NCBI RefSeq assembly: GCF_030369675.1
Contig: NZ_CP128477.1
Span: 3,018,001 to 3,082,000, forward strand
Source: Peteryoungia algae
GTDB lineage: Bacteria > Pseudomonadota > Alphaproteobacteria > Rhizobiales > Rhizobiaceae
Length of the DNA: 64,000 nucleotides
Direction: 5' to 3'
In this document: positions 3,531-63,387 of the stretch, piece by piece
How positions within the stretch are numbered: the stretch's first letter is position 1
Layout of the letters: every line of letters begins with the position of its first letter
Notes under the pieces: model-generated
Seen by the model: the letters and a program-made list of their open reading frames with translations, nothing else
Told to the model about the DNA's origin: nothing
Databases searched by the model: none
Position numbers and translations under genes: made by a program

Positions 3531-6236
3531 TCAAGCACGCTTCCGCAACGTCAGGCGCATCTGCTTTTCGATCTCGACCAGGGCAAAGAAGACCCATCCG
3601 AGGGCGAAGATCAGCAACCCTTCGCGCAGGGGCACGCTCTCGGTCCCGAACAACGACTGCATGAAGGGCAGATAGGTGACGGCAAACTGGGCAATGGTCA
3701 CCGAGATCACGCAAATCCAAACCACCTTCGTGCCACGAACGGCGCGCCAGGTGAGCGAGGTTCCGTAAATATTGCGGATGAAAAAGACGTGGAAGATCTC
3801 CATGACGACGAGCGTGTTCATGGCCATCGTCCGGGCAAGCTCGATCGAGTGCCCCTTATCCACCGCATAAAAGAAAACACCGAAGACCGCGGCGGCGAAA
3901 AGCAGCGAGACGAGGGCGACGTGCCAGATGAGCTCGCCCGTCAGCAGCGGCTCGTCGCGCCGGCGCGGCGGCCGCCGCATCGTTCCTTCCTCAGATGGCT
4001 CGAAGGCGAGGGCGAGGCCGAGCGTGATCGCAGTGACGAGATTGATCCAGAGAATTTGCACAGCGGTCACCGGCAGGGCGAGGCCGACGAAAAGCGCAAT
4101 CATGATCGTGGTGGCTTCACCGGCATTGGTCGGCAAGGTCCAACTGATCACCTTCTTGATATTGTCGTAGACGGTTCTTCCCTCACGCACGGCAGCGGCA
4201 ATCGACGCGAAATTGTCATCTGCCAACACGAGTTCCGCGGCCTCCTTGGCCGCCTCACTCCCCTTGACCCCCATGGCGATCCCGGCATCGGCACGCTTGA
4301 GCGCCGGCGCATCGTTGACGCCGTCACCGGTCATCGCGACCGTCAACCCTTGTGATTGAAGCGCGGTGACGAGCCGCAACTTGTGCGCCGGCGAAGTGCG
4401 GGCAAAGATGTCGGTCTCCATCGCCGCAAGCGCCAGCGTCGCGTCGTCCATGCGGTCGATGTCTGCTCCGGTGAGCACCAGGTCGCTGTTCTTCAGCCCG
4501 ACCATGCCCGCAATGGCCCGGGCGGTTGCAGCATGGTCGCCGGTGATCATTTTCACCCGGATCCCGGCCAGGTGGCATTCGGTAACGGCAGCGATCGCCT
4601 CGGGACGCGGAGGATCGATGAGACCGACGAGACCGATCAGCGTCAACGTGCCGGAGAGTTCATCCTGCGTCAGCGGCTGCTCGTCGTCCGAGGGAGCGCC
4701 GGCCGCCACAGCGAGCACGCGCTGTCCCTTGGCTGCGAGGCTTTCCACCATGGTCTCCCAATAGGCCAGGTCGAGGGCCGCAGTCTGGCCGTCCGGCATG
4801 CACTGGGCGGCGCAGAGCGCAAAAACTGCCTCCGGCGCTCCCTTCACATGCACATGCCTTCGTCCCTCCTCGTCCTGATGAAGCACAGCCATATACCGGT
4901 GCGCCGCATCGAAAGGAATGGCGTCGACACGCGTCCAGCCCACCGCGAACGGATCGCCCCCGTTCCCGGTGATCTTGCCCGCAAGGGCCATCAGTGCCCC
5001 TTCCATCGGATCACCTTCGACCTGCCATGCCCCATCGGCCGAGCGCAGGACGGCATCATTGCAGAGGCCCGCCGCACGGGCGAACGCGAGAAGCACGGCA
5101 TGTTCACGCGGATCCGCATCCGCTTCATTCCAACGGACTGCGCCGCCGGGTGCATACCTGTCACCGTCGACGCGATAGATGTGACGCGCTGCGACCAGGT
5201 TCGCCACCATCATTTCATTTCGGGTCAGTGTGCCCGTCTTGTCCGTGCAGATTACCGACACCGAGCCGAGCGTTTCGATTGCCGGCAGACGGCGCACGAT
5301 CGCGTTTCGGCGGGCCATGGCCTGCACCCCGACGGCGAGCGTGATCGTCATCACGGCTGGCAGGCCCTCAGGAATGGCGGCAACCGAAAGACCGACGATG
5401 ATCATGAAGAGTTCGGCAAAGGGCAGATGACCGACCACGAGTCCGTAGGCGAGCAACAGTGCCGCAATGATGAGGATAAAGAGCGTCAGCCAGCGCGAGA
5501 AAATGTCCATCTGACGCACGAGCGGCGTCGACAGGGTTACGACCCTTTCCAGCATACCACTGATCTTGCCGATTTCTGTTGCCATGCCCGTTGCGACCAC
5601 AATGCCCCGCCCGGTGCCAGCCGCAACGAGTGTCCCGCTATAGAGCATGGAACTGCGATCACCGAGCGCAGCATCGATTGCAACCGGGTCGGTAGATTTG
5701 TCGACCGGAACGGATTCGCCGGTCAGGACGGCCTCTTCGAGCTTGAGGCTACGCGCCTCCAGCAATCTCATATCCGCCGTCACCCGATCGCCCGCCTCGA
5801 TCAGGACGATATCGCCCGGCACGAGGTCCGAAGCATCGACAGATGTCCGACGGCCGTCCCGCAGCACAGCGGCACGTGGCGCCAGCATACCGCGAATCGC
5901 ATTCATCGCCTCCTCGGCGCGCCCCTCCTGCAAGAAGCCGACAACCGAGTTGCCGAGCACGACTGCAATGATAACGCCGGTATCGATCCAGTGCTGAAGG
6001 AACGCCGTTACAATGGCCGAGGCGATGAGCACATAGATCAATACGTTGTGAAACTGAGAAAGAAAGCGCACCAGTGGGCCTCGGCTCGGTGCCGCGATCA
6101 GGCGGTTCGGACCATGAGCCGCAAGTCTGCGCTCCGCCTCTGGCGTTTCGAGTCCGGTGCTTTGCGAACCGATGATCCGAAGGGTTTCGTCCTTCGGCAA
6201 TGCGTGCACTGCCAGTTCCTCAAGATTGTCTGTCAT
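3531..6236 (-). CDS. Cation-transporting P-type ATPase (type II-like)
   Basis: A full-length 901-residue P-type ATPase of the inner membrane. Visible motifs in order: an N-terminal cation-ATPase domain, the actuator loop TGES at about 172-175, the transmembrane PEGL motif at 289-292 typical of type II pumps, the phosphorylation motif DKTGTLT with Asp332, a nucleotide-binding domain with KGAPE, the hinge TGDGVNDAP, and a C-terminal block of membrane helices. There is no N-terminal metal-binding Cys pair, so heavy-metal (type IB) transport is unlikely; calcium, magnesium or monovalent cations are possible. Relatives of this type often occur in low-oxygen stress regulons, and an FNR-like site lies upstream. 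The ion is not determined by sequence alone. Confidence 0.9.
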   Translation of the reverse strand: MTDNLEELAVHALPKDETLRIIGSQSTGLETPEAERRLAAHGPNRLIAAPSRGPLVRFLSQFHNVLIYVLIASAIVTAFLQHWIDTGVIIAVVLGNSVVGFLQEGRAEEAMNAIRGMLAPRAAVLRDGRRTSVDASDLVPGDIVLIEAGDRVTADMRLLEARSLKLEEAVLTGESVPVDKSTDPVAIDAALGDRSSMLYSGTLVAAGTGRGIVVATGMATEIGKISGMLERVVTLSTPLVRQMDIFSRWLTLFILIIAALLLAYGLVVGHLPFAELFMIIVGLSVAAIPEGLPAVMTITLAVGVQAMARRNAIVRRLPAIETLGSVSVICTDKTGTLTRNEMMVANLVAARHIYRVDGDRYAPGGAVRWNEADADPREHAVLLAFARAAGLCNDAVLRSADGAWQVEGDPMEGALMALAGKITGNGGDPFAVGWTRVDAIPFDAAHRYMAVLHQDEEGRRHVHVKGAPEAVFALCAAQCMPDGQTAALDLAYWETMVESLAAKGQRVLAVAAGAPSDDEQPLTQDELSGTLTLIGLVGLIDPPRPEAIAAVTECHLAGIRVKMITGDHAATARAIAGMVGLKNSDLVLTGADIDRMDDATLALAAMETDIFARTSPAHKLRLVTALQSQGLTVAMTGDGVNDAPALKRADAGIAMGVKGSEAAKEAAELVLADDNFASIAAAVREGRTVYDNIKKVISWTLPTNAGEATTIMIALFVGLALPVTAVQILWINLVTAITLGLALAFEPSEEGTMRRPPRRRDEPLLTGELIWHVALVSLLFAAAVFGVFFYAVDKGHSIELARTMAMNTLVVMEIFHVFFIRNIYGTSLTWRAVRGTKVVWICVISVTIAQFAVTYLPFMQSLFGTESVPLREGLLIFALGWVFFALVEIEKQMRLTLRKRA

Positions 6237-6633: not shown

Positions 6634-9600
6634 ATGACGTCGCCCATTTCCCTGCTCAGCCCTGCCCAGATCCGGGCGCTCCCCAATTCGACGGTGAACT
6701 CCTGGTCTGACGAGGAGGTGAGCCAGCTTTCGAGCTCGCAGGTCAACGCGCTGACGTCGTCCCAGATATCCGCGCTGCAAACCGAAGCGGTGGCCGGGTT
6801 GTCGACGTCACAGCTCAAGGCTATCGCCCCGCGTTCGATCACCGGCCTCACCCTGGACCAGATCACGGCGCTTTCGACAGAAGATGTCTCAAGTCTGGTC
6901 TCCACCCAGGTCGCGGCCATGTCGGCGACCCAGCTCGGCGGCTTGAGCACGGAGCAGTCGGAAGCACTGACACCAGCGCAGATCGCCAGACTGACCGCGA
7001 CCCAGCTCAGCGCCTTCAGCGCCGAAGACCTTGCAACCTTTTCCGCTGAAGACATGGCAGCCATCAATACGGCTGCTCTCCGCGGGCAGTCGCCGGAAAG
7101 GATCGCCGGGCTCTCGACAACCCAGATTGCGGCATTGAAATCGACCCAGATCGCCGCATTGAGCCCCGCCCAGATTGCAGCGTTGACGCCTGAGCAGGTC
7201 GCAGCCTTCTCGAACACGCAGATTGCGGCGCTCAGCGGAACGCAGGTTGCTGCTCTGACGACCGATCAGCTCGGAGCACTCTCCACGACGCAATTCACGG
7301 CGATCAGCGCGCGCGCTGTCGTCGGACTGAGCACAACCCAGATCGCCGCCCTCGGAAACGAGAAGATCGGGGCACTGACGACAGTCCAGATGGCCTCGCT
7401 GACATCCCGGCAACTTGCGGCCTTGAGTGTGGAGCAGGTCGCCAGCTTCTCGACCAGTCAGCTCTCGGCCATCAATTCGCGCGCCATTTCGGGACTTTCC
7501 ACAGATCAGGTTGCGGCCTTGTCACCGACGCAGGTCGCGAGCCTGACAGGCGCGCAGATTTCGGCGCTGACCCGGACGCAGATGTCTGCCTTCAGCGAGG
7601 ATCAGCTGTCGGCCCTGACCGCGACACAGGTCAGGGCTCTCAGCGCATCCCAGATCACAGCACTGCCGCCAGCGACAGTTGCGGGTTTCACGACGACCCA
7701 GATCGCGGCACTCACGCCGAAGACGGTAGCTGGCTTGAATGCCGAGCAACTTGCTGCGATGAGCGTTGATCAGGTGAAAAGCCTCAGCACATCCCAGATC
7801 TCCGCCATGACCGCGACACAGGTGGCAAGCCTCTCGACGGCCCAGATTTCTGGCCTTTCGCCCGCCCAGATCGGTGCCTTCAGTTCAGCGGCGGTCACCG
7901 GGCTGACGTCTTCGCAGATCTCGTCATTGAGCTTCAACCAGCTGGCGGCCATGTCGACCACCCAGATCTCGGCGCTCAAGGCAACACAGGTAGCAGTCTT
8001 CACGCCCGACCAGATCGCAGGATTTACTGCGACGCAGATACGCGGCCTGACCGGCACCCAGATTGCCGCCATGCCGGTCGAAGCGATCGCCAGCTTGTCG
8101 GGCGAGCAGATTGCTGCGCTCAGTGTCCGAGCCATGGCCGGCCTCACGGCTGACCAGATCGGCGCGATGTCGATGGATCAGCTGGATGGTCTGAGCACCT
8201 CACAGGTCGGAGCCCTGAGTGCCGCTCAGATCAAAGCCATGCCGGCAGAGTTGATCGACGCCATGAGCCCGGCGAAGATCGCTGCCATCAGCACCAAGGC
8301 GATCACTGGTCTGACAGCAGAACGCATGGCAGCACTTGGTCCGGACCAGATCGCAGCACTCACGACCAGCCAGATCAAGGCTCTGAAGGCCGAGCAAATC
8401 GCCGGATTGACCGCCTTCCAGACGGAAGCGATGTCGAATGGCCAGATTACGGCCCTCACCGCCGCCCAGATTTCCGCGCTTTCTGTGAGCGCAGTCAAGG
8501 CTTGGTCACCGTCCCAGATCGCAGCGCTTTCGCCAGCCTCGATCACGGGACTGACGACAGAGCAGATAACCGCGCTCGAAGACAGCCAGATCGACGGCCT
8601 CACCGCCGCACAGTTCGCGAGAATGAACGGCCCGCAGATCGGAGCACTGTCCAAAGCCCAGCTGGCAGCATTGCTTCCGGCAGAAATTGCGGCGATTTCG
8701 ACGAGCGCCATCTCGTCCATCTCCGCCGACAAGATCGACAGCCTGAGCCTCGAACAGATCGCGAGACTGACGACGGGCCAGATCGCCGCCATGAAAAATG
8801 AACAGGTCGTCGCCTTCACGCCGACCCAGCTTGCATCGTTGAGTGCAAGCCAGTTGCAAGCCGTCACGACCGCCCAGATCGCGTCGCTCTCTCCGAGCAA
8901 CATAGCATCGCTGTCGCGTGAGCAGATCGCAGGCCTTTCTGCGCGCACGATTTCCGCCCTGAGCACCGATCAGATCGCCGCCATGTCGGCGGATCAGATC
9001 GACGCCATGACGGCGACCCAGATCTCCGGTCTGACTGCCGCCCAGCTTGGCGCCATGCGCAAGTCCGACATCCTCGCGTTTCTGCCGGCAGAGATCGCGG
9101 CGATCAATACGAGCGCATTCGCCAGTCTCGACGCTGAAACCATTGCTGCGCTGAACCTCGACCAGGTTGCCGCCTTGACGCCCGCTCAGCTCGGAGCGAT
9201 GAGCGCGGAACAGGTCGCCGCCCTGACACCGACCCAGGTGGATGCCTTGAGCGCAAAGCAGGTGGCCGGATTTGGCGCAACGCAAGCGGCGGCACTGACG
9301 ACGGCTTCCCTCGGGGCGATGTCGCCGGAGCAGATCGCCGCATTGAGCGCGTCCGCGATATCAGCGCTTTCGACGAACCAGATCGCCGCGTTGTCAACCA
9401 ACCAGATCGAAGCGTTGACGACGGCGCAGATGGGCGCATTGACCGGTGCGCAGGTCGCCGCACTGACACCGACCCAGCTTTCCAGCCTGCCAACCGCGAA
9501 ACTGGCTGCCCTCAGCGCCACCGGGATCGGGGGCATGACTACCCAGCAGATTGCCGCACTGGGAGCCGACCAGATCAGCGCATTGACGGCCAGCCAGATC

Positions 9601-10881
9601 GCCTCGCTGACACCGGCACAGATCGGCGCCCTCACACCACAACAGGTCACCCTCCTGTCGACAACACAGGTTGGCGCCCTGGGTGCCAACCAGGTCGCCG
9701 CGCTGTCAAACGACAGCCTGGCCACCCTCACGAGTGAAAAGATCGCCGCATTGAACGCCAAGGCTATTCCGGGGCTGACCACCGCTCAGATTGCCTCCAT
9801 GTCGACAACCCAGATCGACAGTCTCAGCCAGACCCAGATTGCCGCACTGACGGCCACGCAGATCGGTGCACTCTCGTCCGCACAGCTGGCGACGCTCTCC
9901 AACGCCGAGCTTGCTGCAATCGCACCATCCGCGATCTCGGGCTTGTCGGCCGCCAACATTTCCGGCCTGAGCCAGGAGCAGATCGGGGTGCTGACGGCAG
10001 CACAGGTCGGCGCCTTGACCTTCGATCAGTTGAATGCACTGCGGCCGGACCAGCTCGGCGTGATGACCGCAACGCAGATTGGCGCCCTCACGGCAACCCA
10101 GATCGCCTCGCTTTCGTCAGGAACCATTTCGGCCCTGTCGGCCACGCAGATCGCAGCCATTTCCACGAAGGCCATTGCCGGCCTGAGCAGTGCGCAAATC
10201 GCCACACTGACGGCAAGCCAGATCGACGCGATGACCTCTGTCCAGCTCGGTGCGCTGAGCGCCACCCAGCTGGCCGCCTTTAGCCCGGCCGCCCTCGAAA
10301 CCTTGTCCTCTGCCGACATTGCGGCATTGTCCCCGAGCGCCATCGGCGGTCTGGCACCGGCGGTCTTCGCAACACTGCAACCCGAACAGATCGCAGCCCT
10401 GACCACGGGGCAAGTCGCCGGTCTTACCTATCATCAGCTTCGGGCGATGACCCAGGATCAGGTCGGGGCGCTGACGACGGCACAGATCGGCTCGATGAAC
10501 GCCATCCAGTTGGCGACGCTTGGAACCGACAAGCTGAACTGGATGTCGACCAGCCAGATTGCGTCCATGGATCCCAAGGCAATCGGTGGCTTGACCGTGT
10601 CACAGGTCGGAGCTTTCTCGGCGGACCAGGCGGAAGCCCTGACGGCCGCACAGGTGGCCGGCCTGAATTCGGCGCAGTTGACGGCGCTGGGCGCCACCAA
10701 CTTCAGAACCTTCTCGACCGATGACATCGCGGCAATCAGCCAGCAGGCGCTTCCCGGCCTGACGGTGAGCCAGATCTCGAACATGACTCCGGCCCAGTTG
10801 CGGGCGATCAGCGCGACCCAGTCCAACAATCTGAGCCCTGAACAGATCTCGGCGGTTCTCGCCGCCTATCAGGCCGTTTAA
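6634..10881 (+). CDS. Giant octapeptide-repeat protein, 1415 residues, function unknown
   Basis: After 11 leader residues the protein is 175 consecutive octads (nt 6667-10866) with no insertion or deletion, ending in YQAV. The octad consensus is Q-[IVL]-x-[AGS]-[LMF]-[ST]-x-x. By hand count Gln occupies position 1 in about 122 octads, and Ser or Thr fills position 6 in roughly three quarters. I see no cysteine, few charges, no signal peptide, no membrane helix and no recognisable catalytic domain. The S/T-x-x-Q pattern is a classical helix capping box, so a solenoid of very short helices is a reasonable structural guess. Base composition and codon use match the neighbours. The gene stands alone, divergent from the ATPase and convergent with phnF. 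I do not recognise a named family. Confidence 0.9.
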   Translation: MTSPISLLSPAQIRALPNSTVNSWSDEEVSQLSSSQVNALTSSQISALQTEAVAGLSTSQLKAIAPRSITGLTLDQITALSTEDVSSLVSTQVAAMSATQLGGLSTEQSEALTPAQIARLTATQLSAFSAEDLATFSAEDMAAINTAALRGQSPERIAGLSTTQIAALKSTQIAALSPAQIAALTPEQVAAFSNTQIAALSGTQVAALTTDQLGALSTTQFTAISARAVVGLSTTQIAALGNEKIGALTTVQMASLTSRQLAALSVEQVASFSTSQLSAINSRAISGLSTDQVAALSPTQVASLTGAQISALTRTQMSAFSEDQLSALTATQVRALSASQITALPPATVAGFTTTQIAALTPKTVAGLNAEQLAAMSVDQVKSLSTSQISAMTATQVASLSTAQISGLSPAQIGAFSSAAVTGLTSSQISSLSFNQLAAMSTTQISALKATQVAVFTPDQIAGFTATQIRGLTGTQIAAMPVEAIASLSGEQIAALSVRAMAGLTADQIGAMSMDQLDGLSTSQVGALSAAQIKAMPAELIDAMSPAKIAAISTKAITGLTAERMAALGPDQIAALTTSQIKALKAEQIAGLTAFQTEAMSNGQITALTAAQISALSVSAVKAWSPSQIAALSPASITGLTTEQITALEDSQIDGLTAAQFARMNGPQIGALSKAQLAALLPAEIAAISTSAISSISADKIDSLSLEQIARLTTGQIAAMKNEQVVAFTPTQLASLSASQLQAVTTAQIASLSPSNIASLSREQIAGLSARTISALSTDQIAAMSADQIDAMTATQISGLTAAQLGAMRKSDILAFLPAEIAAINTSAFASLDAETIAALNLDQVAALTPAQLGAMSAEQVAALTPTQVDALSAKQVAGFGATQAAALTTASLGAMSPEQIAALSASAISALSTNQIAALSTNQIEALTTAQMGALTGAQVAALTPTQLSSLPTAKLAALSATGIGGMTTQQIAALGADQISALTASQIASLTPAQIGALTPQQVTLLSTTQVGALGANQVAALSNDSLATLTSEKIAALNAKAIPGLTTAQIASMSTTQIDSLSQTQIAALTATQIGALSSAQLATLSNAELAAIAPSAISGLSAANISGLSQEQIGVLTAAQVGALTFDQLNALRPDQLGVMTATQIGALTATQIASLSSGTISALSATQIAAISTKAIAGLSSAQIATLTASQIDAMTSVQLGALSATQLAAFSPAALETLSSADIAALSPSAIGGLAPAVFATLQPEQIAALTTGQVAGLTYHQLRAMTQDQVGALTTAQIGSMNAIQLATLGTDKLNWMSTSQIASMDPKAIGGLTVSQVGAFSADQAEALTAAQVAGLNSAQLTALGATNFRTFSTDDIAAISQQALPGLTVSQISNMTPAQLRAISATQSNNLSPEQISAVLAAYQAV
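7075..10746 (+). repeat. Nine tandem 408-bp (136-residue, 17-octad) super-repeats inside the octapeptide gene
   Basis: Numbering octads from nt 6667, the octads that begin with A (or G) in the form A-I-x-x-L fall at 18, 35, 52, 69, 86, 103, 120, 137, 154 and 171, exactly 17 apart. A second non-Gln marker falls at 28, 45, 62, 79, 96, 113, 130, 147 and 164, and a third at 43, 60, 77, 94, 111, 128, 145 and 162. Copies start at 7075, 7483, 7891, 8299, 8707, 9115, 9523, 9931 and 10339, with a partial tenth from 10747 to 10866. The copies are diverged in DNA, so they are old. Confidence 0.88.
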
Positions 10882-10919: not shown

Positions 10920-11639
10920 TCAGTTTCGAATGGTGAACTGGACCCGGTCTGCCGGGAAACGGGTGACCGCGAATTGGATGGGACGCCCCTCCGGATCGGT
11001 GTTCACCGCGTGCGTGACGAGCACGATTGCACCCGGCGTCAATTCCAGATGTGCGACGTCGTCCGGCTCGGCATGCACCGCTGAAATCTCCGTCACGTCG
11101 CGCAAGTAGTCATCCACGCCACATGCCGACAGGGCACGGGTGATCGAACCTGTCTCGGCAAAAGTCTTGTCGATGCCGGCGAACCGCTCGGCCGGAAACC
11201 ACATCGTGGAGCGCGAGACGGCCCGTCCATCCGCTGTTCGGACCCCGTCCAGTCTCAAGACCTCATCTCCCTGCGACAACTGCAAACGCTCGATCAGGTC
11301 CGGCGTGGCCACCTCACGCGAGGACGAGAGAAGAATACCCTTGAGATCGCGCGCCTGCTCCCCGATGCCTTGCGTGAAGCGCGTACGCCGGCTGATCGGG
11401 AAATCGAACTTGTCGCGCTGGATGATCATGGTGCCCCGGCCCTGTGCCGCACGCACGATCCCCTCCTGCTGCAGGGCGGCTAGCGCCGCCCGCACCGTGT
11501 GCCGGTTGACCCCGAATTCCTGTGCCAAGGCGGTTTCGGCCGGCACCATGCCTGTCCTGTCATAAAGACCTGCCAGGATGTTGGCGCGGATCCGATCGGA
11601 AATCTGGCGCCACAGGGCAACGCCCTTCTGTCTCTGCAT
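10920..11639 (-). CDS. phnF: Phosphonate-metabolism transcriptional repressor PhnF (GntR/UTRA)
   Basis: A GntR winged helix (VPAETALAQEFGVNRHTVRAAL split across two helices) is followed by a UTRA ligand-binding domain (FTQGIGEQ, then alternating strands to IQFAVTRFPADRV). This HutC/PhnF subfamily layout and its position divergent from phnG identify it as PhnF, the repressor of the C-P lyase operon. The start at 11639 (MQRQKGVALW) gives 239 residues; an upstream ATG at 11663 would add eight. It probably also represses itself through the shared intergenic region, where inverted repeats overlap the phnG transcription start. The effector is presumably a phosphonate or ribosyl intermediate. Confidence 0.92.
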   Translation of the reverse strand: MQRQKGVALWRQISDRIRANILAGLYDRTGMVPAETALAQEFGVNRHTVRAALAALQQEGIVRAAQGRGTMIIQRDKFDFPISRRTRFTQGIGEQARDLKGILLSSSREVATPDLIERLQLSQGDEVLRLDGVRTADGRAVSRSTMWFPAERFAGIDKTFAETGSITRALSACGVDDYLRDVTEISAVHAEPDDVAHLELTPGAIVLVTHAVNTDPEGRPIQFAVTRFPADRVQFTIRN

Positions 11640-11667
11640 CACTGGAATTGGGCTCCCTGTCACAAGC

Positions 11668-11741: not shown

Positions 11742-12212
11742 ATGCACAGAGCCAACGAAATCGAACCCGGTGCACCGGCCAGGCGAAAGCGGATCGTCGA
11801 TCTGCTGGCCAGGGCCACGCTTGCCGAACTGCAGGATGCCATCGCGACGATCGAACCCGCGCCGGGCTTCACTACGCTGCGCGGTCCGGAAACCGGACTC
11901 GTGATGGTCAAGGGTCGCATCGGCGGCGGCGGCGCGCCCTTCAATCTTGGCGAAGCGACCGTGAGCCGGGCAAGCGTGCGGCTCGCCGACGGGCGCATCG
12001 GCCACGGCTATCGCCTCGGCACGAACCGGAAGGCAGCGAGCCTCTCGGCCGTGCTCGACGCCCTGGCGCAAGACGAAGCGGCCCTGGCCATGCTGGAGCC
12101 CGCACTCTTCGCGCCACTTGAGGCACGCCTCGCAGCGGAGGCCGAACGACTGGAAACCGAGACGGCTGCCACGAAGGTCGATTTCTTCACCATGGTTCGC
12201 GGAGAAGACTGA
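11742..12212 (+). CDS. phnG: C-P lyase core complex subunit PhnG
   Basis: The 156-residue product is collinear with PhnG, the subunit that with PhnH, PhnI and PhnJ forms the C-P lyase core complex and with PhnI, PhnH and PhnL helps attach methylphosphonate to the ribose of ATP. Recognisable segments include RKRIVDLLARAT, ETGLVMVKGR and RLADGRIGHGYRLGTNRKAA. It is the first gene of the operon and its TGA overlaps the phnH ATG (ATGA-type junction at 12209-12212), indicating translational coupling. It is expected to be induced by phosphate starvation or phosphonate, with PhnF as the local repressor. Confidence 0.95.
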   Translation: MHRANEIEPGAPARRKRIVDLLARATLAELQDAIATIEPAPGFTTLRGPETGLVMVKGRIGGGGAPFNLGEATVSRASVRLADGRIGHGYRLGTNRKAASLSAVLDALAQDEAALAMLEPALFAPLEARLAAEAERLETETAATKVDFFTMVRGED

Positions 12213-12820
12213 TGCTTGAACACACCGAAACCCTGGAGGGCGGCTTCCCCGATGCCGCAACACATGCACAGGAAATCTTTCGCGCCGTCATGGATGCCAT
12301 GGCCCGGCCCGGGACCCTCGGCCTCGTGCAGGTGCCGGTCGCGCCACCCGCACCGCTTGGCATTGCCGCCGGCGCTCTGCTGCTGACACTCTGCGACCAT
12401 GACACCCCCATCTGGGTATCATCGACCATTGCGAAATCGGCCCTGCCCGCCTGGATCAGTTTCCATACGGGGGCGAGCCTGACCAGCGACAAATCCGAAA
12501 CCGGGTTTGCCTTTGTCGAAGCCGGGGCTCCGATTCCTTCGCTCACGCAGTTTTCCCCTGGCACCCAGGAATATCCGGATCGGTCGACAACGCTGGTGAT
12601 CGAGGTTGCAGCACTCGACGATGGCCAACCGCTGCATCTGACGGGCCCTGGTATCCGCGATACAGCCATGATCGCACCGGAAGGCCTGCCGGAAACCTTC
12701 CTGCGGCAATGGAGTGACAATGGCGCAATCTTCCCGCGCGGGGTCGATGTCATCCTCAGCTGCGGCCACCGCTTTATAGCCCTTCCGCGCACCACCAAGA
12801 TCCGTGAGATGGAGGCCTGA
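12212..12820 (+). CDS. phnH: C-P lyase core complex subunit PhnH
   Basis: The 202-residue protein matches PhnH in size and position and contains the typical opening FRAVMDAMARPG and the GPGIRD segment. PhnH resembles a PLP-transferase fold without the catalytic lysine and is a structural member of the PhnGHIJ complex. It overlaps phnG at its start and ends four bases before the phnI ATG. No truncation or frameshift is seen. Confidence 0.95.
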   Translation: MLEHTETLEGGFPDAATHAQEIFRAVMDAMARPGTLGLVQVPVAPPAPLGIAAGALLLTLCDHDTPIWVSSTIAKSALPAWISFHTGASLTSDKSETGFAFVEAGAPIPSLTQFSPGTQEYPDRSTTLVIEVAALDDGQPLHLTGPGIRDTAMIAPEGLPETFLRQWSDNGAIFPRGVDVILSCGHRFIALPRTTKIREMEA

Positions 12821-12823
12821 GCC

Positions 12824-13930
12824 ATGTATGTTGCCGTCAAGGGTGGCGAAAAGGCCATCGCCAACGCCCACAAACTGCTCGCAGACCGCCGGCGTGGAGA
12901 TCGGGCGCTGCCATCCGTCACCATCGACCAGATCGTTGCCCAGCTGGGCCTTGCTGTTGATCGCGTGATGGCCGAAGCGTCGCTCTACGACTGTGCGCTC
13001 GCGGCACTGGCCCTCAAGCAGTCGCGCGGCGACATGATCGAGGCAATCTTCCTTCTGCGCGCCTATCGCACGACGCTGCCACGCTTCGGCACCTCGCGTC
13101 CGATCGAAACAGGCGGCATGCGCGTGGAGCGCCGTGTCTCCGCCACTTACAAGGATCTGCCCGGCGGACAACTGCTTGGGCCCACCTTCGACTACACCCA
13201 TCGCCTGCTGGATCCTTCACTGCTTGACGATGATGCCGTGGAGACGGGCGAACAGCGCGAGGGCGGCCTCGAGCATGTCATGCGGGTCTCGGACATTCTC
13301 GACGGCGAAGGCCTGATCGAGCCGGACGGCGAGATGCCGGAAGATCACATCGCAGGCGACATAACCCGTGAACCGATGGAATTTCCGATGCCACGCGACC
13401 TGCGTCTCCAGGCGCTCGCCCGCGGCGACGAGGGCTTCCTGCTGGCGCTCGGTTATTCGACACAACGCGGCTATGGCCGTTCTCATCCCTTTGTCGGCGA
13501 GATCCGCATGGGGCTCGTCGAGGTGGAGTTCGACGTCCCGGAGCTCGGCTTTGCCGTCTCGCTCGGCGAGATCCGGGTGACGGAATGCCAGATGGTCAAC
13601 CAGTTCAAGGGATCGGCCAAGGCGCCGCCCCAGTTCACCCGCGGATATGGTCTTGTCTTTGGCCAGAGTGAGCGAAAGGCCATGTCCATGTCGCTCGTCG
13701 ATCGGGCGCTCCGGACGGAGGAATTCGGCGAGGACGTCGTCGCGCCTGCCCAGGACGAAGAATTTGTCATCTCCCATTGCGACAACGTCCAGGCAACCGG
13801 CTTTGTCGAACATCTGAAGCTGCCCCACTACGTCGACTTCCAGGCAGAACTCGACCTTGTCCGCCGGATGCGGGCCAAGCACGAGGCCAGCCGCACCGAA
13901 CAGACTGACCTGAAGGAGGCGGCAGAATGA
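12824..13930 (+). CDS. phnI: C-P lyase subunit PhnI (nucleosidase component)
   Basis: A full-length PhnI of 368 residues starting MYVAVKGGEKAI. PhnI has purine nucleosidase activity and, with PhnG, PhnH and PhnL, displaces adenine from ATP to make alpha-ribosyl alkylphosphonate triphosphate. Family segments MRVERRVSATYKDLPGGQ and FTRGYGLVFGQSERKAMSMS are present. A GGAGG ribosome binding site lies inside the end of phnH. The 3' end overlaps the start of phnJ by four bases. Confidence 0.96.
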   Translation: MYVAVKGGEKAIANAHKLLADRRRGDRALPSVTIDQIVAQLGLAVDRVMAEASLYDCALAALALKQSRGDMIEAIFLLRAYRTTLPRFGTSRPIETGGMRVERRVSATYKDLPGGQLLGPTFDYTHRLLDPSLLDDDAVETGEQREGGLEHVMRVSDILDGEGLIEPDGEMPEDHIAGDITREPMEFPMPRDLRLQALARGDEGFLLALGYSTQRGYGRSHPFVGEIRMGLVEVEFDVPELGFAVSLGEIRVTECQMVNQFKGSAKAPPQFTRGYGLVFGQSERKAMSMSLVDRALRTEEFGEDVVAPAQDEEFVISHCDNVQATGFVEHLKLPHYVDFQAELDLVRRMRAKHEASRTEQTDLKEAAE

Positions 13931-14832
13931 CCGCGCTGGCTACCGAACTCGCCACTTACAATTTCGCCTATCTGGACGAACAGACCAAGCGCATGATCCG
14001 CCGCGCGATCCTGAAGGCAATTGCCATTCCCGGGTACCAGGTGCCGTTTGCCAGCCGTGAAATGCCGATGCCCTACGGCTGGGGCACCGGCGGTGTGCAG
14101 GTCACCGCTTCGATCATCGGACGCGACGATACGCTCAAGGTCATCGACCAGGGCGCCGACGACACGACGAACGCCGTCTCCATCCGCGCCTTCTTCCAGA
14201 AAGTCGCAAATGTCGCCGTGACCACAAAGACGAGTGAAGCGACGATCATCCAGACACGCCACCGCATTCCCGAGGAAAGATTGAAGGAGGGTCAGGTTCT
14301 GGTTTACCAGGTCCCGATCCCCGAACCGCTGCGTTTCCTCGAGCCGCGTGAGACCGAGACGCGCAAGATGCATGCGCTTGAAGAATACGGGCTCATGCAT
14401 GTGAAGCTCTACGAGGACATCGCCAAGCACGGCCGCATCGCCACGACCTACGCCTATCCGGTGAAGGTCGAGGGACGCTACGTCATGGACCCTTCGCCAA
14501 CACCGAAATTCGACAATCCCAAGATGCACATGTCGGAAGCCCTGCAACTCTTCGGCGCTGGCCGCGAGAAGCGCATCTACGCTGTCCCGCCCTTCACCGA
14601 CGTCGTCAGCCTCGACTTCGAGGACCATCCCTTCGAGATCCAGACCTTCGACAAGCCCTGTGCGCTCTGCGGCGCCCACAATGTCTATCTCGACGAAGTG
14701 GTGCTCGACGACAAGGGTGGCCGAATGTTCGTCTGCTCCGACACCGACCATTGCGAGACGCGCCAGGCCGAGGGCCATGTCGGCGAAATGCTCGCCCAGA
14801 ACCCAAAGCTCTCCAAGGAGGCCGCGGAATGA
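13927..14832 (+). CDS. phnJ: Alpha-D-ribose 1-methylphosphonate 5-phosphate C-P lyase PhnJ
   Basis: The 301-residue radical-SAM-type enzyme cleaves the C-P bond. Its Cys pattern C245-x2-C248-x21-C270-x5-C276 reproduces the spacing of the E. coli enzyme, where three cysteines bind the 4Fe-4S cluster and the last forms the thiyl radical; all four are intact here. Flanking segments include MPMPYGWGTGGVQ and KPCALCGAHNVY. The gene overlaps phnI at its start and phnK at its end by four bases each, so the core subunits are probably made in coupled amounts. Confidence 0.97.
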   Translation: MTALATELATYNFAYLDEQTKRMIRRAILKAIAIPGYQVPFASREMPMPYGWGTGGVQVTASIIGRDDTLKVIDQGADDTTNAVSIRAFFQKVANVAVTTKTSEATIIQTRHRIPEERLKEGQVLVYQVPIPEPLRFLEPRETETRKMHALEEYGLMHVKLYEDIAKHGRIATTYAYPVKVEGRYVMDPSPTPKFDNPKMHMSEALQLFGAGREKRIYAVPPFTDVVSLDFEDHPFEIQTFDKPCALCGAHNVYLDEVVLDDKGGRMFVCSDTDHCETRQAEGHVGEMLAQNPKLSKEAAE

Positions 14833-50790: not shown

Positions 50791-50902
50791 AGGCCTTAGT
50801 TCCTCGCCATCATCCGAAGCTTGGCGTCTTCCAACATCAAGGCCGCTGCGACTGAATGTTCGCACCTTGCGCTCAAAGTCCCAGCGCGCTATCTCAAGTC
50901 TG

Positions 50903-51000
50903 CTCTAACGGGGTGCCTTCCGGTTTTCGTAGCCGGAATGCTGAGAGGCTTCATGCCAACCCGCGGAACCTGATCCGGTTAAGACCGGCGGAGGGATTAG
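50903..51000 (+). ncRNA. TPP riboswitch (THI element)
   Basis: The conserved THI landmarks are present in order: ACGGGGTGCC, a P3 hairpin CCGG-TTTTCGTAG-CCGG, GCTGAGAGG at 50940, ACCCGCGGAACCTGATCCGG and AGACCGGCGGAGGGA. It sits about 60 bp before thiB. In Proteobacteria it normally turns off translation or transcription of thiamine genes when TPP is abundant. Confidence 0.95.
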
Positions 51001-51058
51001 ACGCGACGATTTCAGGCGCCCTATCCCGACAGCAATGATGATTGAGGAGGAGGGCGCT

Positions 51059-56270: not shown

Positions 56271-56308
56271 TGACATGATGCATGTCATTATGACATGAAC
56301 AATGTCAT
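56271..56308. promoter_or_regulatory. Two tandem TGACAT inverted repeats over the marR start, candidate auto-operator
   Basis: TGACATG-ATG-CATGTCA (56271-56287) and ATGACAT-GAACA-ATGTCAT (56290-56308) are both perfect dyads made of the same half-site, three bases apart. The second contains the marR start codon. This is the classical layout for MarR autorepression. Confidence 0.7.
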
Positions 56309-63225: not shown

Positions 63226-63304
63226 CGGCGCGCTGCCCGGCTGTGCCTCCATGCCTGGCCGAACCCCATTGATTCGCAGTCCGGACAGGGGTAAAACGCC
63301 TTGT

Positions 63305-63358
63305 TCCGTGGTGATTTGGCCGGCCGGCTTGCAGCCACGTAAAATAAGTCGCTAAAGG
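63305..63358 (+). ncRNA. SAM-II riboswitch before metA
   Basis: CCGTGGTGATTTGG, GCCGGCTTGCAGCCACG and the downstream AATAAGTCGCTAAAG reproduce the SAM-II consensus, including the H-type pseudoknot partners. SAM-II riboswitches control methionine genes, most often metA, in alphaproteobacteria. Binding of SAM should lower metA expression. Confidence 0.93.
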
Positions 63359-63387
63359 GCCGAGGCGAGTTATCAGACTTTCCGAGG

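What the first reader, a model, noticed from the sequence alone, without database searches (positions are those of the whole stretch)
7075..10746. Hidden 17-octad (136-residue, 408-bp) super-repeat with two fixed marker windows
Octads that do not begin with Gln are not scattered. After octad 15, all but one fall in two windows of a 17-octad unit: positions 16-17-1-2 and 9-10-11. The first octad of each unit starts with Ala nine times in ten (octads 18, 35, 52, 69, 86, 103, 137, 154, 171; Gly at 120). The unit's eleventh octad is A/T/S-[IVM]-x-x-L (28, 45, 62, 79, 96, 113, 130, 147, 164). The thirteenth octad carries Asp or Glu at its third position in seven of nine copies. This looks like a superhelical turn with two corners, conserved although the DNA has diverged.
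Basis: seen in the sequence. Interest (0 to 1): 0.92.

Follow-up and report, generated by a model that had tools for sequence, protein, structure and literature searches.

The report
Screw-shaped repeat protein, five-turn unit
A bacterial protein built from 176 eight-residue steps hides a second rhythm of 17 steps, best explained by a chain that coils about 3.4 steps per turn so that its pattern closes after five turns; the short repeat is a known type, the higher-order rule looks new.

Summary
The ORF at 6634-10881 is an array of Pfam PF20080 (ALTTAQ) octads and every marker count holds. The 17-octad lag has z 8.5 against 2000 octad-order shuffles (best shuffle 4.1); 408 bp is the top DNA lag. 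The signal is in the protein: synonymous codons are no more alike at this lag than at others.

The interpretation changes. Seventeen octads are probably not one turn with two corners but five turns of a solenoid with about 3.4 octads per turn. Couplings between different octad positions peak at lags 3-4 beyond near neighbours. The acidic residue of the octad has its main spectral line at 0.291-0.297 cycles per octad in 63 of 64 arrays with a significant line. On a 5-turn wheel acidic octads fill one sector; the other 72 octads have none.

Many related arrays sit beside TPR/GT41 glycosyltransferases, three beside type I secretion genes. The window's copy does not; its function (exported acidic rod?) is a guess.

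The parts
6634..10881 (+). Whole coding sequence, 1415 aa, array of 176 octads in one register
   Evidence: ORF; PF20080 E 3.6e-203, 657 bits against a cut-off of 26.4
6634..7074 (+). N-terminal part before the regular units, octads less regular
   Evidence: translation, mask
7075..7482 (+). Unit 1 (17 octads)
7483..7890 (+). Unit 2
7891..8298 (+). Unit 3
8299..8706 (+). Unit 4
8707..9114 (+). Unit 5
9115..9522 (+). Unit 6
9523..9930 (+). Unit 7 (first octad starts with Gly)
9931..10338 (+). Unit 8
10339..10746 (+). Unit 9
10747..10881 (+). Partial tenth unit and C-terminal tail, with stop
3531..6236 (-). Flanking gene, P-type cation ATPase (not part of the system)
10920..11663 (-). Flanking gene, GntR/UTRA regulator, followed by phnGHIJ (not part of the system)

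Best explanation
The ORF encodes an all-helical solenoid in which each octad is one short helix: the Ser/Thr of position 6 caps it and the Gln of the next octad sits at the third helical position (a capping box; name recalled). The chain turns by about 105-106 degrees per octad, so about 3.4 octads (27 residues) make one turn, and octads return to the same face after 7, 10, 17, 24 or 31 steps (2, 3, 5, 7, 9 turns). The 17-octad super-repeat is the five-turn closure used by most Rhizobiaceae-type arrays (written as a 10- plus a 7-octad module). Non-Gln marker octads form lengthwise stripes; acidic residues at octad position 8 make one acidic side and leave the other bare. Shown here: the repeat, lags, couplings, spectra, one-sidedness, length steps, and one helix per octad in the model. 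Inferred: the turn geometry itself, and that the protein is an exported acidic rod of the surface or matrix; for the window's copy that role is a guess (about 0.3). The confidence below is for the geometry.
For: Couplings between different octad positions (position 1 left out) total 0.58 and 0.64 at lags 3 and 4, 0.39 at lag 5 and 0.29-0.44 beyond; position 7 with position 4 is 0.131 at lag 4 and 0.003-0.030 at the other lags to 25, while same-position couplings peak at 7, 10, 17, 24 (19607 octads). In the window protein alone that pair passes z 3 only at lag 4 of lags 1-12. Acidic position 8: 63 of 64 arrays with a significant line have it at 0.291-0.297 cycles per octad; window 0.294, power 21.2 against 8.6 for the shuffles' 95%. 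On the 5-turn wheel the ten acidic unit positions form one block; on the other seven wheels two to seven blocks. AlphaFold2: helix at octad positions 7, 8, 1, 2, 3 in 92-100%, none at 5 and 6; 272-residue model pLDDT 94.6, pTM 0.83. Anchored lengths differ from the window's by whole 17-octad units, zero included, in 15 of 34 Rhizobiaceae-type arrays and 11 of 14 window-type ones.
Against: No coordinates could be read, so the turn is not measured. Alignment to a designed armadillo protein (223 model residues on 323; 42 residues per armadillo repeat recalled) suggests about 3.6 octads per turn rather than 3.4. Torsion building allows 2.7-4.5 or 2.0-6.8, mostly under 4.5. A three-harmonic fit to the non-Gln mask picks 0.286-0.300 in 63 of 88 arrays only; for the window another value (0.059) wins narrowly. 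Variability among homologues shows no period. A spectrum cannot tell the hand of the turn. Many arrays are relatives of each other, so counts are not independent. pTM of the 827-residue model is only 0.58.
Confidence: 0.7

Rival explanations
1. The period is only the scar of tandem duplication of a 408-bp block and has no structural meaning of its own.
For: Units align in register at 41% mean identity against 30-37% out of register; several homologues are longer by exactly 1, 2 or 4 units, so whole units have been gained or lost.
Against: No synonymous excess at lag 17. Arrays of other orders have other closures (24, 31, 48) with the same underlying frequency. Couplings at lags 3-4 and a one-sided acidic sector are not expected from duplication alone. 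Duplication and selection can both be true.
Confidence: 0.15
2. One reading: 17 octads are one wide superhelical turn with two corners at the marker windows.
For: Two windows of non-Gln octads per unit; in the 827-residue model 11 of 101 octads have helices of four residues or fewer, 5 of these at unit positions 1 or 11, so marker octads may be local kinks.
Against: Couplings at lags 3-4; main line of acidic position 8 near 0.294, not 1/17 or 2/17. The non-Gln mask itself peaks at 0.118 = 2/17, which this model would expect; I read it as the third harmonic of 5/17.
Confidence: 0.08
3. The window protein is, like related arrays, a substrate of a TPR/GT41 glycosyltransferase, glycosylated on Ser/Thr and exported by type I secretion.
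For: 49 of 98 loci hold a GT41 match; of 52 array-GT41 pairs 41 are same-strand with GT41 downstream and 40 lie within 308 bp. Of 12 genomes of the family with strong arrays 9 have GT41, against 15 of the other 89 (Fisher p 8.5e-5). GT41-linked Rhizobiaceae-type arrays have Ser/Thr at octad position 7 in 80% (14 arrays) against 47% (25 arrays without GT41 in the held DNA), p 7e-5. HlyB- and HlyD-type genes lie beside the array in L114, L122, L119. The own genome has one GT41 gene and two PrtD-type exporters over the cut-off.
Against: No GT41 or exporter next to the window gene; its position 7 is Ser/Thr in 31% only. Three genomes with strong arrays (G020, G031, G062) show no GT41; the arrays read there have 25-52%. 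HlyD in 2 of 58 neighbour proteins scanned as a set. The HlyB-like genes score under the curated cut-off of their model.
Confidence: 0.2

Closest known systems
Pfam PF20080, ALTTAQ repeat
   Same: The octads are this repeat: E 3.6e-203, 57 stretches.
   Different: The model has 38 positions; nothing seen here describes a 17-octad unit, a turn or a function. NCBIfam has no match.
PDB 9zem, HeliScrew4
   Same: Sequence match over 109 residues, E 7.5e-20, with the same 8-residue pattern.
   Different: 120 residues; name and sequence suggest a design (inference). Its structure did not appear in the fold lists and was not seen. Super-repeat not tested there.
Mesothelin (human) solenoid
   Same: The seven best Foldseek matches of the 272-residue model, probability 0.99-1.00.
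   Different: TM-scores 0.26-0.34, rmsd 10-13; sequence matches at E 1-3; no Pfam match to such a family.
Armadillo/importin solenoids
   Different: Armadillo repeats are about 42 residues with three helices (recalled); here eight residues with one.
FlmG and flagellins of Caulobacter (PMC7591256, passages read)
   Same: A TPR-glycosyltransferase whose TPR part binds its export-destined substrate: a model for the GT41-linked arrays.
   Different: Other substrate; the window gene has no such neighbour.

Membership tests
PF20080 ALTTAQ repeat | Score over the curated cut-off | tested here: met
   657.4 bits against 26.4. Four other families also pass their cut-offs (CAAP1, SAM_3, LRR_EndoS, Sigma70_r4_2) but with no stretch that passes alone; taken as repeat-driven chance.
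HeliScrew fold (9zem) | Sequence similarity | tested here: met
   E 7.5e-20
HeliScrew fold (9zem) | Same three-dimensional structure | not testable with these tools
   not listed; coordinates not available
Armadillo/HEAT | Multi-helix repeat of about 40 residues with the family's profile | tested here: not met
   8-residue one-helix repeat, no such Pfam match; it may still work like one
Leucine-rich repeat | Beta strand in each repeat | tested here: not met
   no strand in either model, in spite of weak sequence matches to LRR chains
Mesothelin family | Common fold | tested here: inconclusive
GT41-linked arrays | GT41 gene beside the array and Ser/Thr-rich octad position 7 | tested here: not met
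   neighbours; 31% against 80%
RTX-type type I secreted proteins | Glycine-rich calcium-binding repeats | tested here: not met
   no such Pfam match

The most novel reading that the evidence does not exclude
A second-order helical code: the solenoid behaves like an alpha helix one level up. With about 3.4 octads per turn, 7-octad (two-turn) and 10-octad (three-turn) modules play the part that heptads and longer repeats play in coiled coils; their mixture (10+7, 10+7+7, 10+7+7+7) keeps stripes of special octads in register along the rod, so that rods pack side by side into fibres through those stripes.
Probability: 0.3. Interest if true: 0.85.

Novelty: new variant of a known kind. Interest (0 to 1): 0.62.

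Why it matters
It gives a family known here only by its short repeat a readable geometry: sequence alone suggests the number of repeats per turn, which octads share a face and which length changes are tolerated. One structure can test it, and it would help the design of one-helix repeat rods. It also separates two kinds of array: one tied to an OGT-like glycosyltransferase (a possible class of bacterial O-glycoproteins) and one, the window's, that is not.

Tried and rejected
Recent duplication as the source of the 408-bp signal: no synonymous excess; Tandem Repeats Finder reports only a 24-bp unit of about two copies inside the array.

Rate differences as evidence of faces: no line in the spectrum of variability among homologues; dN/dS by unit position runs 0.07-0.15 without a clear face. 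By octad position Gln is slowest, 0.036 against 0.08-0.18.

Backbone building with fixed torsions and a scan for compact solutions: permissive, not decisive.

Synteny as a clue for window-type arrays: neighbours vary (MarR in 3, GntR/UTRA in 2 of 47 proteins; 25 of 49 families shown). Neighbours of GT41-linked arrays: sugar-nucleotide enzymes in a few, flagellar families in a few, HlyD in 2 of 58 (25 of 54 families shown).

Plasmid records: 59 with a match; the 25 listed are hypothetical, unnamed or unannotated. Phages: one record, 10% covered. Promoter and terminator scans: none found.

Papers: ten searches. Searches listed no paper; two searches listed papers on other subjects (listings seen only); one search listed OGT/SPINDLY papers and FlmG, of which only passages of PMC7591256 were read.

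Length tests with poorer anchors were replaced, where 3 of 37 arrays (L074, L078, L117) fell under the anchor scores. Anchors can slip by octads: L073 comes out at -2.0 units and -2.5. Searches used 88 of 104 arrays: left out were 13 loci close to the window gene (L087-L098, L100), L081 (no real array) and two with under 60 octads; some near-identical pairs stayed in. One search left out six more loci (L086, L110, L132, L138, L150, L153). In one search, 19 of 88 arrays had too few acidic octads to test, and 5 of 69 gave no significant line.
Full report
WHAT IS THERE. The window lies in a 4.4-Mb single-contig genome. Named records with the closest copies of the gene are Rhizobium rhizophilum (95%), R. 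rosettiformans (90%), Agrobacterium albertimagni and Peteryoungia aggregata among others. The ORF at 6634-10881 (+) encodes 1415 residues, one register of 176 octads of Pfam PF20080. Its neighbours are a P-type cation ATPase (3531-6236, -) and a GntR/UTRA regulator (10920-11663, -) followed by phnGHIJ.

THE OBSERVATION. Protein identity peaks at lags 136, 272 and 408, DNA identity at 408, 816, 1224 and 1632 bp; against 2000 shuffles of octad order lag 17 has z 8.5, the best shuffle over 59 lags 4.1. Units are 34-49% alike (mean 41%), out of register 30-37%. Codon identity given the same residue is at background at this lag, so the DNA peak is carried by the protein.

CONSTRAINT. Of 60 genomes of the genus, own included, 50 had a match; 16 others have a collinear full-length homologue and one more (G152) is split over two contigs (at most ten candidates per genome were scored, so misses are possible). 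The 16 have no internal gap and largely keep the Gln/non-Gln pattern down to 51% identity. dN/dS against the window's gene is 0.063-0.114 for 14 and 0.24-0.27, near saturation, for the two most distant. Each unit is closest to its own counterpart in 9 of 9 cases for two homologues tested, in 7 and 6 of 9 for the two most distant, so units are not being homogenised.

FAMILY-WIDE PATTERN. Arrays from the family and from named genomes were compared. Most Rhizobiaceae-type arrays show lag 17, often with 7, 10 and 27; many arrays of Rhodospirillales, Caulobacterales and others show 24, 31 or 48. These are near whole turns if one turn is about 3.4 octads (7/2, 10/3, 17/5, 24/7, 31/9). Written as marks at the Gln position, Rhizobiaceae-type arrays read like DDAN......N.A...., a 10- plus a 7-octad module. 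The non-Gln mask gives a mixed picture: a three-harmonic fit prefers 0.286-0.300 cycles per octad in 63 of 88 arrays, the window's not among them, though 0.294 is its close second. The cleaner indicator is the acidic residue at octad position 8: 69 of 88 arrays had at least eight, 64 had a line above their own shuffles, and 63 of these 64 have it at 0.291-0.297, or 3.37-3.44 octads per turn; the exception is L154 at 0.415.

CONTACTS. Mutual information over 19607 octads separates two signals. Same-position couplings peak at 7, 10, 17 and 24. Couplings between different positions are high at lags 1 to 4 and drop at 5; position 7 with position 4 of the fourth octad on is 0.131, and 0.003-0.030 at the other lags up to 25. 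Contacts between successive turns of 3 to 4 octads would give this. In the window protein alone the same pair passes z 3 only at lag 4; its strongest couplings of any kind lie at lags 1, 3 and 4, but also at 7 to 9.

MODEL. AlphaFold2 predicts one short helix per octad with high local confidence (residues 1-827: pLDDT 93.1, pTM 0.58; residues 148-419: 94.6, 0.83; 14 sequences each). Helix positions and the coupling of position 6 with the next position 1 fit a Ser/Thr cap and Gln at the third helical place. Foldseek and VIA-align put the models near mesothelin and armadillo-type solenoids at modest scores. Coordinates could not be read. A rough reading of one alignment to a designed armadillo protein gives 29 residues, 3.6 octads, per turn.

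THE WHEEL. On a wheel of five turns per 17 octads the ten unit positions with acidic position-8 residues form one block, 318 through 0 to 148 degrees; the other seven (72 octads) have none. The seven other wheels break them into two to seven blocks; by chance one of eight wheels would show a single block in about 0.7% of random placements. The marker octads fall at 339-0 (11, 1), 106-148 (2, 9, 16) and 254 degrees (17). If the wheel is right, the two windows of the sequence are three stripes in space.

LENGTH STEPS. Anchored at both ends, 15 of 34 Rhizobiaceae-type arrays differ from the window's by whole 136-residue units; in the window-type group (low Ser/Thr at position 7) 11 of 14 do: seven by zero, three by one unit, one by two. 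Two more are shorter by seven octads, two turns on this reading, and one is a residue short of a unit. In the other 20, only 4 do. Relatedness makes these not independent.

FUNCTION. Relatives give the only leads. Of ten neighbour proteins of about 600-700 aa scanned, nine are TPR/GT41. GT41 matches lie in 49 of 98 loci, mostly directly downstream of the array, and linked arrays have Ser/Thr at octad position 7 more often. L114, L122 and L119 have HlyB-like and HlyD genes beside the array. A Rhizobium plasmid shows an array divergent from a TPR protein (GT41 not tested there), with glf, curlin and further glycosyltransferases nearby. The own genome's single GT41 gene lies beside the paralogue at 1.71 Mb, 1.3 Mb from the window's gene. 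The window protein has 31% Ser/Thr at position 7 and no such neighbour, so I take it for an unglycosylated or lightly glycosylated sister. That it is an exported acidic rod is inference from composition (pI 4.4, no Cys), from the absence of an evident signal peptide by eye, and from relatives.

VERDICT. The pattern is real and conserved; the two-corner turn is probably a five-turn closure; the rule behind it holds across the arrays tested. The repeat family is known to Pfam; in the ten searches of the held library I saw no paper on it or on its super-repeat (subscription journals and preprints are not held).

Noticed in passing
G000:C1 1706000-1714000 (locus L067): Second array of the own genome (open frame 1829 aa) with a divergent TPR/GT41 gene; 93% Ser/Thr at octad position 7.
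   Followed up: partly
L114:2537-14937, L122:3673-13838, L119:2128-12644: Arrays beside HlyB-like and HlyD type I secretion genes; in L114 and L122 a GT41 gene follows downstream.
   Followed up: partly
window 63298-63375 and 50899-51013, + strand: SAM_alpha and TPP riboswitch aptamers.
   Followed up: no
window 11742-14829: Start of a phosphonate (phnGHIJ) operon.
   Followed up: no
L131:1494-2720: Flagellin-like gene near an array; flagellar families (FlbT, FlaF, FliF) turn up among neighbours of GT41-linked arrays.
   Followed up: no
L113, L125, L140, L157: Arrays in records named Noviherbaspirillum, Solidesulfovibrio and a Marinimicrobia MAG, outside Alphaproteobacteria; binning errors in MAGs not excluded.
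   Followed up: no
window 7770-10829, - strand: Many long antisense ORFs opposite the array (up to 259 aa), expected from the repeat and high G+C; not taken as genes.
   Followed up: no
window 56271-56308: Two copies of a 20-bp repeat.
   Followed up: no
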